This document shows positions 395 through 7,800 of a stretch of DNA of 27,934 bases, piece by piece. Under the pieces are notes generated by a model. The model made no database searches. It had not been told where the DNA came from and saw nothing but the letters and a program-made list of their open reading frames with translations. Positions within the stretch are counted from its first letter, which is position 1; every line of letters starts with the position of its first letter. A program made the translations under genes and the position numbers. The stretch comes from a virus, in IMG/VR virus record IMGVR_UViG_3300031974_004842, positions 1-27,934 of that record, one strand, 5' to 3'.

Positions 395-1153
395 ATGGCT
401 AAAGGATTTACTGTAAAAGCAAAGGCACCCAAAGCGTCTGAGAGCACACAAGAATGGGACTATGAAAAAGCAAGAGAAATGGTGAAAGGCAAGGCCATTG
501 TGTTTTGCCTACCCGGTAGAGGAGTTTCTTATACATATCTCAAAAATTTTGTACAACTTTGTTTTGATTTGGTACAGGCAGGAGCAAGTATTCAGATCTC
601 ACAAGACTACAGTTCAATGGTAAACTTCGCACGTTGCAAGTGCCTTGGGGCAAATGTGCTGCGTGGACCCGATCAGATTCCATGGGACGGTAAGTTAAAG
701 TATGATTATCAGTTATGGATTGATAGTGACATTGTGTTCAACTCTGAGAAGTTCTATCAGTTAGTTCTGATGGATCAGGACATTGCGAGTGGATGGTATA
801 TGACTGAGGACGGTCGTACCACGAGTGTTGCACACTGGATGGAAGAGGATGATTTCCGTAACAATGGTGGAGTGATGAATCATGAAACTGGTGAGAGTAT
901 TTCCAAACGTCGCAAACCATTCACTGTTGACTATGCAGGATTTGGATGGTTATTGATCAAGCACGGAGTCTTTGAGCACGAAGACATGAAGTATCCATGG
1001 TTTGCACCAAAGATGCAAGTCTTTGAGTCTGGAGAGGTTCAGGACATGTGTGGAGAGGATGTAAGTTTCTGTCTGGATGCAAAGGAAGCAGGATTTGAGA
1101 TTTGGTGTGATCCTCGCATTCGCGTTGGACACGAAAAGACTCGGGTGATCTGA
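395..1153 (+). CDS. Glycosyltransferase-like protein, GT-A fold
   Basis: A 252-residue protein. After a Lys/Ala-rich start of about 35 residues it shows a GT-A (family 2-like) pattern: strand 'KAIVFCLPGRG' (33-43), a helix, then 'LWIDSDIVF' with the DxD motif at D110 and D112. DxD motifs coordinate the metal and nucleotide-sugar. An acidic 'GEDVSFCLDA' (220-229) and a late histidine in 'VGHEKTR' (H246) resemble the catalytic-base and metal-ligand region of such enzymes. It should transfer a sugar, but the substrate and acceptor cannot be read from sequence. Candidates are host surface glycan, phage DNA or virion proteins. It has its own sigma70-type promoter and overlaps the next gene by one base (TGATG). 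There is no signal peptide or membrane segment, so it is probably cytoplasmic. Confidence 0.72.
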   Translation: MAKGFTVKAKAPKASESTQEWDYEKAREMVKGKAIVFCLPGRGVSYTYLKNFVQLCFDLVQAGASIQISQDYSSMVNFARCKCLGANVLRGPDQIPWDGKLKYDYQLWIDSDIVFNSEKFYQLVLMDQDIASGWYMTEDGRTTSVAHWMEEDDFRNNGGVMNHETGESISKRRKPFTVDYAGFGWLLIKHGVFEHEDMKYPWFAPKMQVFESGEVQDMCGEDVSFCLDAKEAGFEIWCDPRIRVGHEKTRVI

Positions 1154-1314
1154 TGATACAGACAGAGTATACAATTCTCCATAAAGGGAAAGTTCTTCAT
1201 AAAGGATTGACGGAGGAGGAATACTTTGATATAATGGAGGACCTTTCGGTAGAGTATTATCAGAAAGGTTCTCCAAGACCACAAGATTTGGAAACCAAGA
1301 CTATTAAGATTTAA
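1153..1314 (+). CDS. Small hypothetical protein (53 aa)
   Basis: The ATG overlaps the stop of the glycosyltransferase gene in TGATG, so the two are probably translationally coupled; no separate Shine-Dalgarno sequence is evident. The product starts 'MIQTEYTILHKGKVLHKG', which looks like a short beta hairpin, followed by an acidic helix 'LTEEEYFDIMEDLSVEYYQ' and a polar tail. There is no membrane segment or metal-binding motif. I believe similar short proteins occur in cyanophages as conserved hypotheticals, but I cannot name a family. The spacing to both neighbours and the intact frame support a real gene. Confidence 0.65.
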   Translation: MIQTEYTILHKGKVLHKGLTEEEYFDIMEDLSVEYYQKGSPRPQDLETKTIKI

Positions 1315-1480: not shown

Positions 1481-2164
1481 ATGATTGATGACGATACACA
1501 AGCATGGGAAGCATATCCTTCATTTCGATGGGTATTCAATAAACTTGAAGTTGCAATGCGATTTGGTTATGAGTGTGGACCTGCCTGTGTACCAATCAAG
1601 AAAAAGGGTAATTACATTATAAGACCCATTTACAACTTATTCGGACAAGGTATTGGTGCTAAAAAACAATACCTTGATCCTGAATTACATACCGAAGAGA
1701 TGATTCTTCATGAACATGTGCCTCCTGGATATTTCTGGTGTGAGTATCTAAAGGGGCAGCATTATAGTATTGACTATAAACGTGAAAATGAACGATGGAT
1801 TCCTTTTAGTGCAATGATTGGAAAGCATGAAACAGAAGAAAATCTAACAAGATTTGAAGTATGGGAAAAAATTGAACTACCAAATTTTACTTTACCCGAT
1901 TTCATTCATCAAATTGATGTGGAATACTTGAATATTGAATCAAAAAACGGCAAACCATTTGAGATTCACCTTCGGACTGGTAATGATCAGATATGGGATC
2001 TACCAATGGGTTCAAAAGTTTATCCAATATGGGATGAGGAGAGTATGAATCACAAGAAAAACTTAAAATTCTCGCCAAATCATCAATCAGATCTTCGTTT
2101 TTACTCGGCAGATGGGCATTTAAGTGATGTAAGGCGTGGATTTTACATTGAAGAAGCAAAATAA
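1481..2164 (+). CDS. ATP-grasp-like protein
   Basis: A 227-residue protein with three features in the right order for an ATP-grasp ligase. These are 'NYIIRPIYNLFGQGIGAKK' (44-62, resembling the nucleotide-binding K/R-P...G.G loop), 'YFWCEYLKGQHYSIDY' (84-99, like the E-F/Y-x-x-G-x-x-Y-S-x-D strand pair) and 'VEYLNIE..GKPFEIHLR' (148-165, like the E...E-I-N-x-R metal-binding strand, with His in place of Asn). ATP-grasp enzymes join a carboxylate to an amine or similar group via an acyl-phosphate; the substrate here is unknown. The open frame extends upstream to an ATG at 1343, but that would overlap the basic-protein gene by 131 bases. ATG 1481 starts just after that gene and is preferred. It has only a weak GGA upstream. 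Confidence 0.55.
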   Translation: MIDDDTQAWEAYPSFRWVFNKLEVAMRFGYECGPACVPIKKKGNYIIRPIYNLFGQGIGAKKQYLDPELHTEEMILHEHVPPGYFWCEYLKGQHYSIDYKRENERWIPFSAMIGKHETEENLTRFEVWEKIELPNFTLPDFIHQIDVEYLNIESKNGKPFEIHLRTGNDQIWDLPMGSKVYPIWDEESMNHKKNLKFSPNHQSDLRFYSADGHLSDVRRGFYIEEAK

Positions 2165-2223: not shown

Positions 2224-2403
2224 ATGGGCAACTCACCCGTCGATAGAAACGCAAACATCATGAGAGAAGTGTGGGGAACAACAAGTTTAACGTCAGATTA
2301 TTGGTCATTGCCCCATGAAACGAATGATAATGCAGAAGAAAGAGTAATTCAAGAAATTATGCATGATGATTTGAAGAAAGGACAAAAGAATCTGCAGGAA
2401 TAG
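2224..2403 (+). CDS. Small hypothetical protein (59 aa)
   Basis: An ATG with a good Shine-Dalgarno (AGGAG at 2214-2218, five bases before the start) opens a 59-codon frame ending in TAG at 2401-2403, directly before the late promoter of gp25. The product starts 'MGNSPVDRNANIMREVWG', has a central Ser/Thr stretch and ends in an acidic then basic helix ('ETNDNAEERVIQEIMHDD', 'LKKGQKNLQ'). I do not recognise a family. There is no membrane segment or cysteine. The ribosome binding site and the exact fit between neighbours support a real gene. Confidence 0.62.
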   Translation: MGNSPVDRNANIMREVWGTTSLTSDYWSLPHETNDNAEERVIQEIMHDDLKKGQKNLQE

Positions 2404-2435: not shown

Positions 2436-2837
2436 ATGGCAGTTCAAAGGATATCAAGGGCATTTAAGGATATTAGCTTATCTTTTGTGCCTCATCCTGT
2501 AACAAAGGACCTACCGATATTAAAAAATGAGAGTGCGATTCGTCGTGCGGTAAGAAATATTGTACAAACGATTCCAACAGAAAGATTTTTCAACTCTCTG
2601 TTGGGATCTGATGTAAGGAGAAGTTTATTTGAATTTGTTGATTTTGGTACTGCATCCGTAATTCAAGATCAAATTCAAATTGCAGTTGAAAATTTTGAAG
2701 AAAGAGTCGAAAATATAATTGTTCAAGTTGATCCAATATTTGACGAAAATTCTTTTAATGTAACTGTTATATTCGACATTGTAGGTCAAGAGTTTCCAAC
2801 ACAAGAATATTCATTCCTCTTAGAGGCAACCAGATAA
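2436..2837 (+). CDS. 25: Baseplate wedge subunit gp25
   Basis: A 133-residue protein, essentially the length of T4 gp25 (132). It has the gpW/gp25 family pattern: basic N-terminus 'MAVQRISRAFKDI', then 'KNESAIRRAVRNIV', then 'ERFFNSLLGSDVRRSLFEF', a helix ('AVENFEERVENIIVQV') and C-terminal strands. In contractile-tail phages gp25 sits in the wedge core and contacts the first sheath layer, priming sheath polymerisation. It follows a late promoter by 22 bases. A convincing Shine-Dalgarno is absent. Only the base at 2838 separates it from gp6, so the two are probably translated in a coupled way. The assignment is confident from both sequence pattern and gene order. Confidence 0.92.
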   Translation: MAVQRISRAFKDISLSFVPHPVTKDLPILKNESAIRRAVRNIVQTIPTERFFNSLLGSDVRRSLFEFVDFGTASVIQDQIQIAVENFEERVENIIVQVDPIFDENSFNVTVIFDIVGQEFPTQEYSFLLEATR

Positions 2838-2838
2838 A

Positions 2839-4815
2839 ATGCCTTTTACAAAATTTTCAAATTTAGACTTTGACCAGATAAAGACATCCATCAAGGATTA
2901 TCTTCGTGCCAACTCAACATTCACGGATTTTGACTTTGAAGGATCAAATTTTTCTGTTTTAATCGACACGTTAGCATATAACACATATATTACAGCATTT
3001 AACTCTAATATGATTGTGAATGAATCCTTTTTGGATTCTGCAACATTGAGAGAAAATGTAGTTTCACTTGCATCTAATATTGGTTATTTGCCTCGTTCTA
3101 GAAACGCATCTAAGGCACAAATATCCTTCGACGTAACAACCACCGAAGACACCCCTACACTTACTCTCAAGGCAGGTATAGTGTGTGTAGGAAGTGCTAA
3201 TGATACTTCATACACCTTTGCTATATCGGAGGATATTACAGCAAATGTCGTAGATGGTACGGCATCATTTAGTAACATTGATGTATATCAAGGAATATTT
3301 TTAACAAAACAATTTAGATATGATGGTTCTTTAGATCAGAGATTTATTCTGAATAATTCTTTCATTGATACCTCGACATTAAAAGTTTACATCAAAAGGG
3401 AATCCGAGAGTGGTATTGGAATAGAATATACGGCATCAGAAAATATTTTTAATGTTGATAAAAATTCCAGAATTTATTTCATCCAAGAAGTTCAAGATGA
3501 AAAATATGAATTACTTTTTGGTGATGGAATTATTGGTAAAAAATTAGGAGATGAGGTCGGATCTGATGGAACTATCATAACTGCAAATTATCTCATAACA
3601 GATGGTAGAGATGGTAATGGTGCAACATCATTCTCTTTTTCCGGAACCTTAGAAACATCGTCCTCTACAGTTATTGATCCGGGCACGATAATTATTACAA
3701 CAAATCAAACATCACAAAATGGTGCTGACATTGAGTCTATAAGTTCTATTAAATATTTTGCACCTAAAATATATGCATCACAATACAGAGCAGTTACTGG
3801 AAGAGATTATGAATCTATTATTAAAACAATCTATCCAGATACTGAATCTGTATCTGTAGTTGGAGGGGAGCAGTTAGATCCACCAGAATTTGGAACCGTT
3901 CAAATTGGCATTAAACCAAAGAATGGTTCTTTTTTATCAGACTTCAATAAATCTCAAATATTATCAAAATTAAAGCAGTTTTCTGTTTCTGGAATCAATC
4001 AGAAAATAGTTGACCTTAAAATTCTTTATGTGGAACTGGACAGTTCTGTATATTATAATTATTCTCAAGTTTCAAGTTTAGATACATTAAAGACTTCTGT
4101 AACCAATTCTTTAGAAGAATATTCAAAGTCATTGGATCTGAATAAATTTGGGGGAAGAATAAGATACAGTAAAATACAACAGGTTATTGATAATACAAAT
4201 ACTGCAATTACGTCTAATATCACAAAGGTTATTATTCGAAGAGATTTGAGGGTAGCACTGAATAAATTTGCACAGTATGAATTATGTTTTGGAAATAGAT
4301 TTCATGTAAATCCTCAGGGTAGAAATATTAAATCTACAGGATTTAAAATTGAAGGAGAATCATCGACAGTATATCTAAGAGATGTCCCAGATGTATCTGT
4401 AAATCAATCTTCTATCACTACTGCAAGTGAAGCATCGAATGTTTTTCTAACTAGACCAAACCAATTAGTATCAAAGACAGGAAAACTTTCTATTTTTAAA
4501 ATTGATGATAATGGTAATATTATTACTGTTGCCAAAGATGTAGGTACGGTCAATTATGAAAAAGGTGAGATTATTATCAACACTATAAAAATTACTCAAA
4601 CTTCATCACCTAATGGAATTGTAGAAATTCAGGCATTCCCAGAATCCAATGATGTTGTTGGATTAAGAGATCTTTATATCACTTTAGATATCTCAAAAAG
4701 TACAATAAATATGGTAAGAGATGTAATTGCATCTGGAGATGAAATTTCAGGAACCAGATTTGTTAATGATTTCTATACATCAAGTTACTCAAACGGAAAT
4801 TTAGTAAGAAAGTAA
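2839..4815 (+). CDS. 6: Baseplate wedge subunit gp6
   Basis: A 658-residue protein, close to T4 gp6 (660). The N-terminus has the characteristic opening of the gp6/J-like family: 'FDQIKTSIKDYLRANSTFTD' followed by 'FSVLIDTLAYNTYITAFN' and 'SATLRENVVSLASNIGY'. Further on are 'YELLFGDGIIGKKLGDEVG' and 'YRAVTGRDYESIIKTIYPD', both typical of this family. gp6 forms the dimeric ring that holds the wedges together and works with gp25, gp7 and gp53. It lies between gp25 and the gp7-like gene, with one base on either side. Nothing about its length or frame is abnormal, in contrast to its downstream neighbour. Confidence 0.93.
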   Translation: MPFTKFSNLDFDQIKTSIKDYLRANSTFTDFDFEGSNFSVLIDTLAYNTYITAFNSNMIVNESFLDSATLRENVVSLASNIGYLPRSRNASKAQISFDVTTTEDTPTLTLKAGIVCVGSANDTSYTFAISEDITANVVDGTASFSNIDVYQGIFLTKQFRYDGSLDQRFILNNSFIDTSTLKVYIKRESESGIGIEYTASENIFNVDKNSRIYFIQEVQDEKYELLFGDGIIGKKLGDEVGSDGTIITANYLITDGRDGNGATSFSFSGTLETSSSTVIDPGTIIITTNQTSQNGADIESISSIKYFAPKIYASQYRAVTGRDYESIIKTIYPDTESVSVVGGEQLDPPEFGTVQIGIKPKNGSFLSDFNKSQILSKLKQFSVSGINQKIVDLKILYVELDSSVYYNYSQVSSLDTLKTSVTNSLEEYSKSLDLNKFGGRIRYSKIQQVIDNTNTAITSNITKVIIRRDLRVALNKFAQYELCFGNRFHVNPQGRNIKSTGFKIEGESSTVYLRDVPDVSVNQSSITTASEASNVFLTRPNQLVSKTGKLSIFKIDDNGNIITVAKDVGTVNYEKGEIIINTIKITQTSSPNGIVEIQAFPESNDVVGLRDLYITLDISKSTINMVRDVIASGDEISGTRFVNDFYTSSYSNGNLVRK

Positions 4816-4816
4816 T

Positions 4817-7800
4817 ATGATACAAACTGGATTTGATTCTAGAATAAAAGTACAAGACATTATTGAAAGTCAACTTCCAAGTTTTATTTTGGAAGAAAGT
4901 CCGAACGCTTCAGAATTTCTAAAGCAATATTATATTTCTCAGGAATATCAAAGTGGACCAACTGATATTGTTGATAATTTAGATCAATATCTAAAACTTG
5001 ACAATCTAACTCCTGAGGTTGTCGTTGATAGTACAACATTATCAGCAGATATAAGTGAGAGTGATACTATAATTTCTGTCTCAAGTACAAAGGGATTTCC
5101 AAATCAATATGGATTATTAAAAATTGATGATGAAATCATTACATATACTTCAATAGAAGATAATACTTTTGTTGGATGTGTTCGTGGATTTAGTGGTATT
5201 ACAAATTATCATCATACTCTAGATCAACAAGAACTTATATTTTCAACGTCAACATCGGAATCGCATACAAGTGGTTCATCGATTCAAAATTTAAGTTCTT
5301 TATTTTTAAAAGAGTTTTATAAAAAACTAAAATATACATTTGCTCCTGGATTTGAGGACATAGCATTTGCTGAAGATCTTGATGTTGGAAATTTTTTAAA
5401 GAGAATTAAAGATTTTTATGCATCAAAAGGAACGGAAGAATCGATAAGAATACTTTTCAATGTAATATTTGGAGAAACTCCAAAGGTCATAAACCTAGAA
5501 GAGTATTTAATTAAATCTTCTTCTTCAAATTATGTAAGAAGAGAAATCATTATAGCAGAGTTAATAACAGGAAATCCTTTAAATGTAGAGGGGCAGACAC
5601 TATTTAAAAATGGAGATACAAGTACATCAGCTCCAATTTCATCAGTAGAAACTTTTACTAAAAAGGGAAAACAATTTTATAAGTTAGAACTTTTTATTGG
5701 TTATGATGATAAGTCTTTAATTGAAGGAAATTTCACCGCAACACCTAATACAAAAGTATTAGAATCTGTTTCTATAGGATCTTCTGTTATTTCTGTAGAT
5801 TCTACTATTGGATTTTCAGATTCGGGTACTTTATTTTCCGGAACTAACACAATAACATATACTGAGAAAAGTGTAAATCAATTCTTTGGATGTTCTGGAA
5901 TTGCGTCACCGATTGATGCTACAGATAATATTAGATCCGATGATACTTATTTCTCATATGAAAATGGGGACATTAATAAGAAAGTAGAATTTATAATCTT
6001 TAATGTCATTTCTGGATTTGTTCAGGATGATAATGGTAGAGGAATTCATGAGAATGATCCTATAACAGTTAAGAGTCCCGGAGATAAAATCAACAATACG
6101 GGAAAGAATTTTAAAGAGATATTTGCAAATTCTTGGATTTATAATACTAGATCGAGATATCAAATAACGGATAATAGTTCTTTTAAATTGGGATCTAAAA
6201 TTGAAAAATCTAGTTTAAAAATTGGTGACGAAATTGAAGTTTTAGATAGAAACACAGAAAATGTAGTATCCACCAATTCTTATATCAATTCAATTGATGA
6301 ATCTGCAAATACAATAAGTGTAGAAAATGCTCCTACATTAGCATCAAATGGATTATATGATGTTAGAAGAAAATTAAACAAATCAAAATCATCATCAGTT
6401 CCATTTGAATATGGAGATAATTCTATTATTTCAGATGTTTTGAATGTTTATTCAGAAAAGAATGAATATGCTTATGTTGCATCAAATTCATTACCTTCCC
6501 AAGAAAATGATACTATCTCTTATAGAACTAATATAGAACTTGAGATAAGTTCGGTAGGTATCTCTACTGCTGACAATTTTTCAGACTATGATGCCTTAAA
6601 TCAAGTATATACAAGCTTTTTTGTAACTTCTGTCCCATTTTTTACTGGAGATAGGGTTTATTATTTACCAGAAAATGAATCTTTAATCGGACTTGATGAG
6701 GGTTCTTATTATATTGAAGTTTTATCTGGAAATAAATTTAGAATTTATGCTTCTCCATATCTCATAGGAACATCAAATTACATAACTTTTAATTACTCAG
6801 ATGAAAATAATATAGGAAATCATACCTTTGTTCTATATTCTCAAAGAAGTTTAGAGATTGGAAATGAAAATTTATTGAAAAAATTTCCATTAGAGAAAAA
6901 TATTAAAAAAGGATCTGGAGAAGAAACTACTCCTGGAAAAGTGGGAATGCTTATTAATGGGGTAGAAATATTAAATTATAAGTCTAAAGATTTAATTTAT
7001 TATGGACCATTAAGTTCTTCAAATGTTATTTCTGGTGGTGAAGATTATGATGTTATTAACCCCCCACAGATTGAGGTTGGATCTTATTTGGGTGTAGGAA
7101 CTACTGCAAAAATACAACCAGTCATAAGTGGAAGTTTTGAAAAAATTTATGTAGATAGTCAAGATTATGATATAGAAAATATTGTCTCCATTAATATTAG
7201 TGGTGGAAATGGGTCCGGAGTAAATATCGAACCTGTTCTGAAGAAAAAATTCAGAAGTGTATCTTTTGACTCTAAAGAATTTTCAAATGGTGGTGGTGTT
7301 AGTACAACTACAAATCAAATTCAATTTTTAACTGATCATAATTTTATAGATGGACAAGAAATTATATACACTCCAGTAGGAAGTAATTCTATAAGTATAG
7401 GAACTGATTTATCATCATCTTCAAGTGTTCCATCTGGAGCATCATTTTATGTTCAAGTAGATAATAATTCTACTATAACTTTGTATAATTCCTTAAGTGA
7501 TCAACAATCCCAAACTAATCCTGTTGGAATATATTCTGGATCTTTAGGAACACATAGGTTTACTTCCTCAAAATCAAAAAATCAATTAGATTCTATTAAA
7601 ATTTTAGATGGTGGAAGTGGATATACAAATCGTAAGTTGATTGTTGAACCCTCTGGGATATCGACATTCAATGATACGATTACTTTTAAAAATCATGGAT
7701 TTAATGATGGAGAAATAATTGAATATGAGTATGAAACATCAGCAATATCTGGAATTTCTACAAATAATCAACATTATGTCTTAAAAGTAAGTGATGATGC

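What the first reader, a model, noticed from the sequence alone, without database searches (positions are those of the whole stretch)
1481..2164. Probable ATP-grasp enzyme in a phage structural neighbourhood
Three ordered segments fit the nucleotide loop, the 'EYLKGQHYSID' strand pair and the 'EIHLR' metal strand of ATP-grasp ligases. With the adjacent glycosyltransferase it may form a small modification module, perhaps acting on a sugar, peptide or virion protein.
Basis: inference. Interest (0 to 1): 0.5.

Follow-up and report, generated by a model that had tools for sequence, protein, structure and literature searches.

The report
Phage-only ATP-grasp ligase family
This virus gene encodes a small, probably active member of the ATP-grasp enzyme superfamily, of a kind found almost only in viruses and not yet labelled as such in the databases searched; in some related viruses it sits beside a gene resembling enzymes that attach amino acids to proteins, which hints that it joins amino acids or peptides to something.

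Summary
The ORF (ATG 1481, 227 aa) is under purifying selection, and its AlphaFold2 model (pLDDT 91.6) matches ATP-grasp enzymes (Foldseek best E 1.9e-6; VIA Z up to 13.1). The whole family carries ExH where the superfamily has ExN, and lacks a pre-ATP-grasp domain. It is phrog_3577 ("unknown function"), abundant in IMG/VR, nearly absent from cellular genomes, and named by neither Pfam nor NCBIfam.

The glycosyltransferase "module" is not supported: that gene is common in cyanophages whose slot holds other cargo. The strongest context lies in relatives: an arginyl-tRNA-protein-transferase-like (ATE_C) gene lies in 17 of 198 distinct loci and is next to the ATP-grasp gene in all 17 (one intervening gene in one), in three supported clades. 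In cyanophage-type loci an ATE-containing cassette occupies the same slot instead. Its usual partner resembles thiolate-haem guanidine hydroxylases (weak to moderate evidence). Best reading: an amide-forming ligase of a small phage amino-acid or peptide modification pathway; substrate unknown.

The parts
1481..2164 (+). ATP-grasp family ORF, 227 aa (phrog_3577)
   Evidence: ORF; 62 of 62 members match phrog_3577; fold; conservation, dN/dS
1541..1543 (+). K21, linker lysine of the ATP-grasp template
   Evidence: invariant in 193 of 193 rows; template from PMC4431377 section read; residue equivalence inferred from order and secondary structure
1622..1651 (+). R48 and nucleotide loop N52-G57 (RPIYNLFGQG)
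   Evidence: R48 190 Arg + 3 Lys, N52 193, G55 189, G57 170 of 193; strand 43-49 then loop in model
1733..1774 (+). FWCEYLKGQHYSID strand pair (F85-D98), hinge region
   Evidence: F85 and W86 193, E88 188, G92 188, S96 185, D98 97 of 193; strands 84-88 and 95-102
1931..1975 (+). Metal-binding hairpin N151-E153 and E161-I-H163-L-R165 (ExH in place of ExN)
   Evidence: N151, E161, H163, R165 193 of 193; E153 189 Glu + 4 Asp; profile alignment to cellular ATP-grasps in the same register in 5 of 5 comparisons, weak P 0.014-0.047
395..1153 (+). GT-like protein, phrog_1574: conserved neighbour on the edge of the slot, not shown to be a partner
1153..1314 (+). small ORF (cluster c7), 53 aa
1324..1473 (+). 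small basic protein, 49 aa (cluster c9/k14), upstream border of the variable slot
   Evidence: read; profile match 5.6e-26
2224..2403 (+). 59-aa ORF (cluster c3/k10), downstream border of the slot
2436..2837 (+). baseplate wedge gp25
   Evidence: PF04965 1.5e-08, phrog_261 2.6e-49
2839..4815 (+). baseplate wedge gp6
   Evidence: PF21379 2.4e-17, phrog_219 1.8e-196

Best explanation
The ORF encodes a stand-alone, catalytically competent ATP-grasp ligase. It would bind Mg-ATP between the strand carrying R48 with the N52-G57 loop and the E153/E161/H163 metal hairpin, phosphorylate a carboxylate, and pass the acyl group to an amine, making an amide (peptide-like) bond. Lacking the usual pre-ATP-grasp domain, it probably takes its second substrate from a protein, a peptide or a partner enzyme. 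It belongs to a virus-specific family that in several marine phage lineages lies beside an ATE_C (arginyl-tRNA-protein-transferase-like) gene, so the likely pathway is attachment of an amino acid, perhaps arginine-related, to a peptide, protein or small molecule during infection. In the window's cyanophage-like lineage it is a cargo gene in a variable slot just upstream of gp25. Shown here: the predicted fold, conservation of the active site, purifying selection, family distribution, adjacency to ATE_C genes and shared slot use. Inferred: ATP use, amide chemistry, and the amino-acid or peptide substrate.
For: Fold: AF2 pLDDT 91.6, pTM 0.87; Foldseek top hit L-amino acid ligase 3vot 1.9e-6, with Streptomyces ATP-grasp peptide ligase 8ynd/8ynq and BacD/YwfE among the best; VIA Z 13.1 over 206 residues for GAR synthetase, the 50 rows shown lying within about 2 Z. 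Active-site conservation and dN/dS. ATE_C neighbour: Pfam PF04377 2.3e-06 over cut-off for L084, best PDB sequence match ATE1 at E 0.0018. Of 198 distinct ATP-grasp loci 17 hold an ATE gene, all 17 adjacent, 16 with overlapping stop-to-stop frames and one with one gene between. On 50 whole contigs 10 have ATE, 7 within 17 nt of the ATP-grasp match; random placement gave 7 or more in 0 of 200,000 trials, and with one contig per clade 3 of 5, P 3e-4. Three separate supported clades, gene order reversed in one. Slot use: 28 deduplicated GT-to-gp6 loci with ATP-grasp, 14 with ATE-k12-k2, none with both.
Against: 181 of 198 distinct loci have no ATE gene in the fetched flanks and 40 of 50 long contigs have none at all; in 3 of 10 contigs with both, they lie 35-67 kb apart. 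The window has no ATE, k2 or k12 match. No profile method links the family to ATP-grasp significantly: Pfam ATP-grasp_3 reached only E 0.073 in 2 of 62 members, PDB sequence profiles found no ATP-grasp, hhalign P was 0.014 at best with deeper profiles and not significant with shallow ones. The fold ranking does not separate amide ligases from carboxylases (rows tied). The H in ExH is unusual. Substrate and product are unknown. 'Neither' cases at the slot were not sampled, because loci were fetched through the ATP-grasp or ATE queries.
Confidence: 0.58

Rival explanations
1. It is a purine-pathway type ATP-grasp (PurK/PurD-like) serving nucleotide supply, as cyanophages carry several purine genes (recalled).
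For: The best VIA rows are GAR synthetase and PurK chains, Z 13.1-12.6; some cyanophages with other slot cargo carry a gene annotated purM there.
Against: Rows within 1 Z are tied and amino-acid ligases reach 12.2; the protein lacks the pre-ATP-grasp domain those enzymes have, the model aligning from chain residue 47 or later in the top rows; ExH replaces ExN in 193 of 193; the slot 'purM' protein has no PurM-type Pfam match.
Confidence: 0.1
2. With the GT-like neighbour it forms a sugar or surface-glycan modification module.
For: Adjacent in the window's clade; GT profile in 21 of 198 distinct loci; GT-like match to phrog_34859 glycosyltransferase 2.2e-05; a UDP-glucose 4-epimerase gene lies upstream in BUCT-ZZ01.
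Against: The GT is found in twice as many phage records, stays when the slot holds other cargo, and is not found with most of the family.
Confidence: 0.1
3. A non-catalytic or differently catalytic ATP-grasp-fold protein (for example a phosphotransferase, or a virion or assembly factor beside baseplate genes).
For: Sits directly upstream of gp25/gp6 in the window; ExN is altered to ExH; D98 is variable.
Against: K21, R48, N52, E153, E161 and R165 are kept across very diverged members; outside the window's clade and its isolate relatives the neighbours are other genes, not gp25/gp6.
Confidence: 0.17
4. It is a member of the R2K (CDC123-like) peptide-ligase clade known from phages.
For: R2K.2 members occur in caudate phages and are predicted peptide ligases (PMC4431377, sections read).
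Against: R2K lacks the linker lysine and the glycine loop; this family keeps both in nearly all of 193 rows, and no R2K Pfam model matched.
Confidence: 0.03

Closest known systems
ATP-grasp L-amino acid ligases and peptide ligases (BL00235-type 3vot, BacD/YwfE 3vmm/3wnz, Streptomyces 8ynd/8ynq)
   Same: Predicted fold over the whole 227 residues (Foldseek E from 1.9e-6; VIA Z 11.3-12.2) and the K, basic-strand, glycine-loop and acid positions of the template.
   Different: About 10-14% identity; no pre-ATP-grasp domain; ExH instead of ExN; no significant sequence-profile link.
R2K clade of ATP-grasp enzymes (CDC123, DUF4343; PMC4431377, read in part)
   Same: Small ATP-grasp proteins in phages, predicted to ligate peptides.
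   Different: R2K has lost the linker lysine and the glycine loop; this family has kept both.
Argolaphos cluster of Streptomyces monomycini (ATP-grasp AlpC, GNAT aminoacyl-tRNA ligases AlpF/AlpO, YqcI/YcgG AlpD; PMC8976061, passages read)
   Same: In some phages the ATP-grasp, an ATE_C gene and the YqcI/YcgG-like k2 gene lie side by side.
   Different: The window has only the ATP-grasp; k2's likeness to YqcI/YcgG is weak by sequence (hhalign P 0.008) and moderate by fold (Z 7.7); no phosphonate genes were looked for.
phrog_3577
   Same: All 62 members of the alignment match it, E down to 1.6e-41.
   Different: PHROGs gives it no function.

Membership tests
ATP-grasp superfamily | ATP-grasp fold (RAGNYA plus kinase-like subdomain) | tested here: met
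   Model pLDDT 91.6; 111 PDB chains at E <= 1e-3; Z 13.1 over 206 residues. Predicted, not solved.
ATP-grasp superfamily | Positively charged residue in the linker before the RAGNYA domain | tested here: met
   K21 193 of 193; template as in PMC4431377 section read
ATP-grasp superfamily | Positively charged residue at the end of RAGNYA strand 2 | tested here: met
   R48 190 Arg, 3 Lys of 193; strand 43-49
ATP-grasp superfamily | Acidic residue in strand 4 of the kinase-like domain | tested here: met
   E153 189 Glu, 4 Asp of 193
ATP-grasp superfamily | ExN (occasionally another polar residue) in the last strand | tested here: met
   ExH in 193 of 193: E kept, N replaced by His, a substitution of the kind PMC4431377 allows
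ATP-grasp superfamily | Sequence-profile similarity to known families | tested here: inconclusive
   ATP-grasp_3 E 0.073 in 2 of 62; hhalign P 0.014-0.047 in 5 comparisons against 0.082-0.88 in 20 decoy comparisons; shallow profiles not significant
R2K clade | Linker lysine absent | tested here: not met
   K21 present in 193 of 193
R2K clade | Strand 2-3 loop without the glycine motif | tested here: not met
   G55 in 189 and G57 in 170 of 193
[quoted passage not shown]
   No conserved Arg seen in residues 84-102 of the conservation lists, but the equivalence of the strand was not established by a structure-based alignment
Amide/peptide-forming ATP-grasp ligases | ATP-dependent amide bond formation | not testable with these tools
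   needs an enzyme assay

The most novel reading that the evidence does not exclude
Marine and freshwater tailed phages carry compact, swappable gene sets (an ATE_C-type aminoacyl-tRNA transferase, this ATP-grasp ligase, a miniature YqcI/YcgG-like thiolate-haem guanidine hydroxylase, sometimes an amidinotransferase and radical-SAM enzymes) that build an arginine-derived or guanidino-modified peptide, metabolite or protein tag during infection. The window's gene is the ATP-grasp arm of that system, kept alone in a cyanophage cargo slot where relatives carry the ATE arm.
Probability: 0.2. Interest if true: 0.82.

Novelty: new variant of a known kind. Interest (0 to 1): 0.58.

Why it matters
A family with at least 574 tblastn-confirmed matching stretches in IMG/VR in one capped scan, seen in 3 loci of the 84,980-species genome collection, is carried by PHROGs as unknown function and matched by no Pfam model over cut-off (62 members tried) and no NCBIfam model (5 members tried). 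Reading it as ATP-grasp, with an invariant ExH motif and a recurrent ATE_C neighbour, turns an anonymous phage gene into one with a direct assay (ATP plus amino acids, tRNA or peptide) and raises the question whether phages tag proteins or make peptide-like metabolites.

Tried and rejected
Rejected: an R2K assignment (two defining features not met). Rejected: the TTG-1343 start; the match of the query's first residues to S-T4 and S-SRM01 reflects the out-of-frame small basic gene. Rejected: GT plus ATP-grasp as an obligate module. Set aside: speD (AdoMet decarboxylase-like) directly after the ATP-grasp in 12 loci (annotated so in S-SRM01), because it occurs with the ATE cassette too.

Led nowhere: PDB sequence profiles; hhalign with shallow ATP-grasp sets and in global mode; Foldseek on k2 (no E <= 1e-3); k2 profile against PDB sequences; GT against PDB sequences (no match); PADLOC (no match); ATE in cultured phages (no match); Pfam on further neighbours mostly nothing. 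Paper searches that found nothing: phrog_3577 (0 papers); arginyl-tRNA-protein transferase + phage + ATP-grasp; arginyltransferase + bacteriophage + viral genomes. Searches with hits but none seen to describe this family: (listings; passages or sections read only where cited; also passages of PMC7824862, PMC3597751 and PMC11360552). These cover an open-licence library only. A paper that may bear on it (Iyer et al. 2009) is not held.

Rows dropped before counts: the 198 loci are distinct by the last 150 residues of the open frame (287 loci before); the 193-row alignment leaves out frames under 180 aa and may hold the window protein twice (window and L001); the tree keeps 136 rows below 85% identity, ATE-linked rows first; the 55-row list is reduced at 80% and leaves out rows under 180 aa. 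I did not intersect the full lists (44 rows were not shown).

Full report
What is there. Window 1481-2164 (+) is a 227-aa ORF, ATG to stop. The longer mechanical ORF from TTG 1343 overlaps, in another frame, a 49-aa basic gene at 1324-1473 that is conserved on its own. Order in the window: small ORF 152-343, GT-like 395-1153, small ORF 1153-1314, basic gene 1324-1473, the ORF, small ORF 2224-2403, gp25 2436-2837, gp6 2839-4815, then large genes. The record is a virus contig. It resembles T4-like cyanophages (Kyanoviridae) in this region. The ORF is under purifying selection: dN/dS 0.08 to L002, 0.06 to L003, 0.08 to L014, 0.16 to L038.

Fold. No Pfam or NCBIfam model matched the window protein at E 1, and among 62 family members only two touched ATP-grasp_3, at E 0.073. 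All 62 match phrog_3577, unknown function. An AF2 model from those 62 sequences has pLDDT 91.6 and pTM 0.87. Foldseek gave 111 PDB chains at E <= 1e-3, best 3vot (L-amino acid ligase) at 1.9e-6. VIA-align gave Z 13.1 (rmsd 3.4, 206 aligned) for 3lp8, a GAR synthetase, then PurK, PurT, L-amino acid ligase, biotin carboxylase and peptide ligase chains down to Z 11.0 in the 50 rows shown. Rows within 1 are tied, so the fold says ATP-grasp but not which reaction. In the top rows the aligned chain range starts at residue 47 or later, after the N-terminal domain of those enzymes; the protein has no room for a pre-ATP-grasp domain. Sequence profiles alone are weak: hhalign of a 193-row family profile (152 used) against five cellular ATP-grasp templates gave P 0.014-0.047, each aligning the same metal hairpin, against 0.082-0.88 for four other profiles in 20 comparisons; shallow profiles were not significant.

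Active site. On 193 rows: K21, P49, N52, F85, W86, N151, E161, H163 and R165 are invariant; R48 is Arg in 190 and Lys in 3; G55 189; E88 188; E153 189 Glu and 4 Asp; W128 192; G220 192 of 192. The superfamily template (Burroughs et al. 2015, PMC4431377, abstract and sections 5 and 7 read) has a linker basic residue, a strand-2 basic residue, an acidic residue in strand 4 and ExN in the last strand; the family fits with ExH for ExN in 193 of 193. The R2K clade of that paper lacks the linker lysine and the glycine loop, so this is not R2K. Residue equivalences are inferred from order and secondary structure; no coordinates were available to superpose.

Distribution. In cultured phages 50 records match, all named Synechococcus phages, 45 of them ACG-2014f types. 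The genome collection gave 3 confirmed loci of 14 candidate stretches, in MAG or binned contigs. So the family is essentially viral in the collections searched.

Neighbours. The GT-like gene is a neighbour only in the window's clade and related isolates. It is present in 104 phage records. In cyanophages the stretch between the basic gene and gp25 is a cargo slot: ATP-grasp in the window, S-T4, ACG-2014f and (split in two frames) S-SRM01; k12 (phrog_3704, annotated variously ferredoxin, purM or transcriptional regulator) in Bellamy, S-SM2, Sf-FS3 and Sf-CH5; a 2OG-Fe(II) oxygenase in P-SSM2; S-CAM7 has the GT without gp6 in the stretch fetched. Sullivan et al. 2010 (PMC3037559, passage) already name the stretch between gp46 and gp25 a hot spot with small genes.

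The ATE_C link. A neighbour cluster in other clades matches Pfam ATE_C (arginyl-tRNA-protein transferase C terminus): 2.3e-06, over cut-off, for L084; below cut-off for L081, L160 and L173; none for L079. Its profile finds arginyltransferases as the best five PDB sequences, E 0.0018 to 0.056. Of 198 distinct ATP-grasp loci, 17 hold it and all 17 have it adjacent. On 50 whole contigs (of 64 records that I had listed), 10 have it, 7 within 17 nt and 3 at 35-67 kb. Random placement reached 7 of 10 in 0 of 200,000 trials; with one contig per clade, 3 of 5, P 3e-4. In the tree the ATE-linked rows fall into three clades (SH-aLRT 99, 100, 99; one row of the second, L334, has no ATE in its locus), and the gene order is reversed in the third. 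This supports a functional tie, but 181 of 198 loci show no ATE in their flanks, many of which are short.

The slot swap. Of loci with both the GT and gp6, deduplicated, 28 hold the ATP-grasp between them, 14 hold ATE-k12-k2, none both. Loci were fetched through one or the other query, so slots with neither are not counted.

Wider cassette. ATE's commonest neighbour is k2 (76 gene places within five genes in 87 ATE loci). An AF2 model of k2 (pLDDT 94.8) has no Foldseek hit at E <= 1e-3; VIA's five best rows are all AglA of Streptomyces monomycini, Z 7.7 to 7.3 with 153-158 of 168 residues aligned, next row 5.6. Z under 8 may mean only a common arrangement. AglA is a YqcI/YcgG thiolate-haem enzyme that hydroxylates the guanidine of arginine (PMC12866846, passages). 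hhalign of k2 with YqcI/YcgG sequences gave P 0.0081, aligning PCPFAKKA with PCVGAKSA, and with one DUF6875 sequence P 1.1e-4; four other profiles against the YqcI set gave 0.16-0.63 (one of the six YqcI rows was probably a wrong frame). The cysteine is invariant in k2. Next to some ATP-grasp genes lies k98, whose profile matches amidinotransferases (HsvA 9e-13, SxtG 2.1e-11, AGAT 4e-10), in 5 of 198 loci, and radical-SAM-type genes in some. The argolaphos cluster of Streptomyces combines an ATP-grasp ligase, GNAT aminoacyl-tRNA ligases and a YqcI/YcgG enzyme (PMC8976061, passages), which is why I name the arginine reading as the novel case. ATE, k2 and k12 were searched for in the window and not found; k98 was not.

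Mechanism. Most likely: ATP phosphorylates a carboxylate; an amine attacks; an amide results. Fold and residues are shown (predicted); chemistry and substrate are inferred from the superfamily and the ATE_C tie. Lack of a pre-ATP-grasp domain suggests a protein, peptide or carrier substrate (inference).

Verdict. A new, virus-specific variant of a known superfamily, of moderate interest as it stands and high interest if the cassette reading holds.

Noticed in passing
L013:3499-4005 (also L035): A second, truncated copy related to the ATP-grasp (27-32% identity) lies just upstream of the full one and lacks the ExH motif.
   Followed up: partly
L030:4983-5291 and 5197-5700 (S-SRM01): The ATP-grasp homologue is split over two overlapping frames in this isolate record: either decayed or a sequencing error.
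   Followed up: no
L104:941-1666 and cluster c51: A ferredoxin-dependent bilin reductase gene (PF05996, 3.1e-20) lies one or three genes upstream of the ATP-grasp in five loci.
   Followed up: no
L160:5017-5673; phage hits: The cyanophage gene labelled purM, ferredoxin or transcriptional regulator (phrog_3704) has no supporting Pfam match: the name looks wrong.
   Followed up: partly
L189:1629-2003 and cluster c11: A gene annotated S-adenosylmethionine decarboxylase in S-SRM01 directly follows the ATP-grasp in 12 loci and also occurs in two ATE-cassette slots.
   Followed up: partly
L157, L148, L172: Radical-SAM genes cluster around the ATE/k2 pair.
   Followed up: partly
window 1207-1235 (+): A promoter-like match (TTGACG-17-TATAAT, 11 of 12) upstream of the slot genes; 11 such sites against 6.3 expected, so weak evidence.
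   Followed up: no
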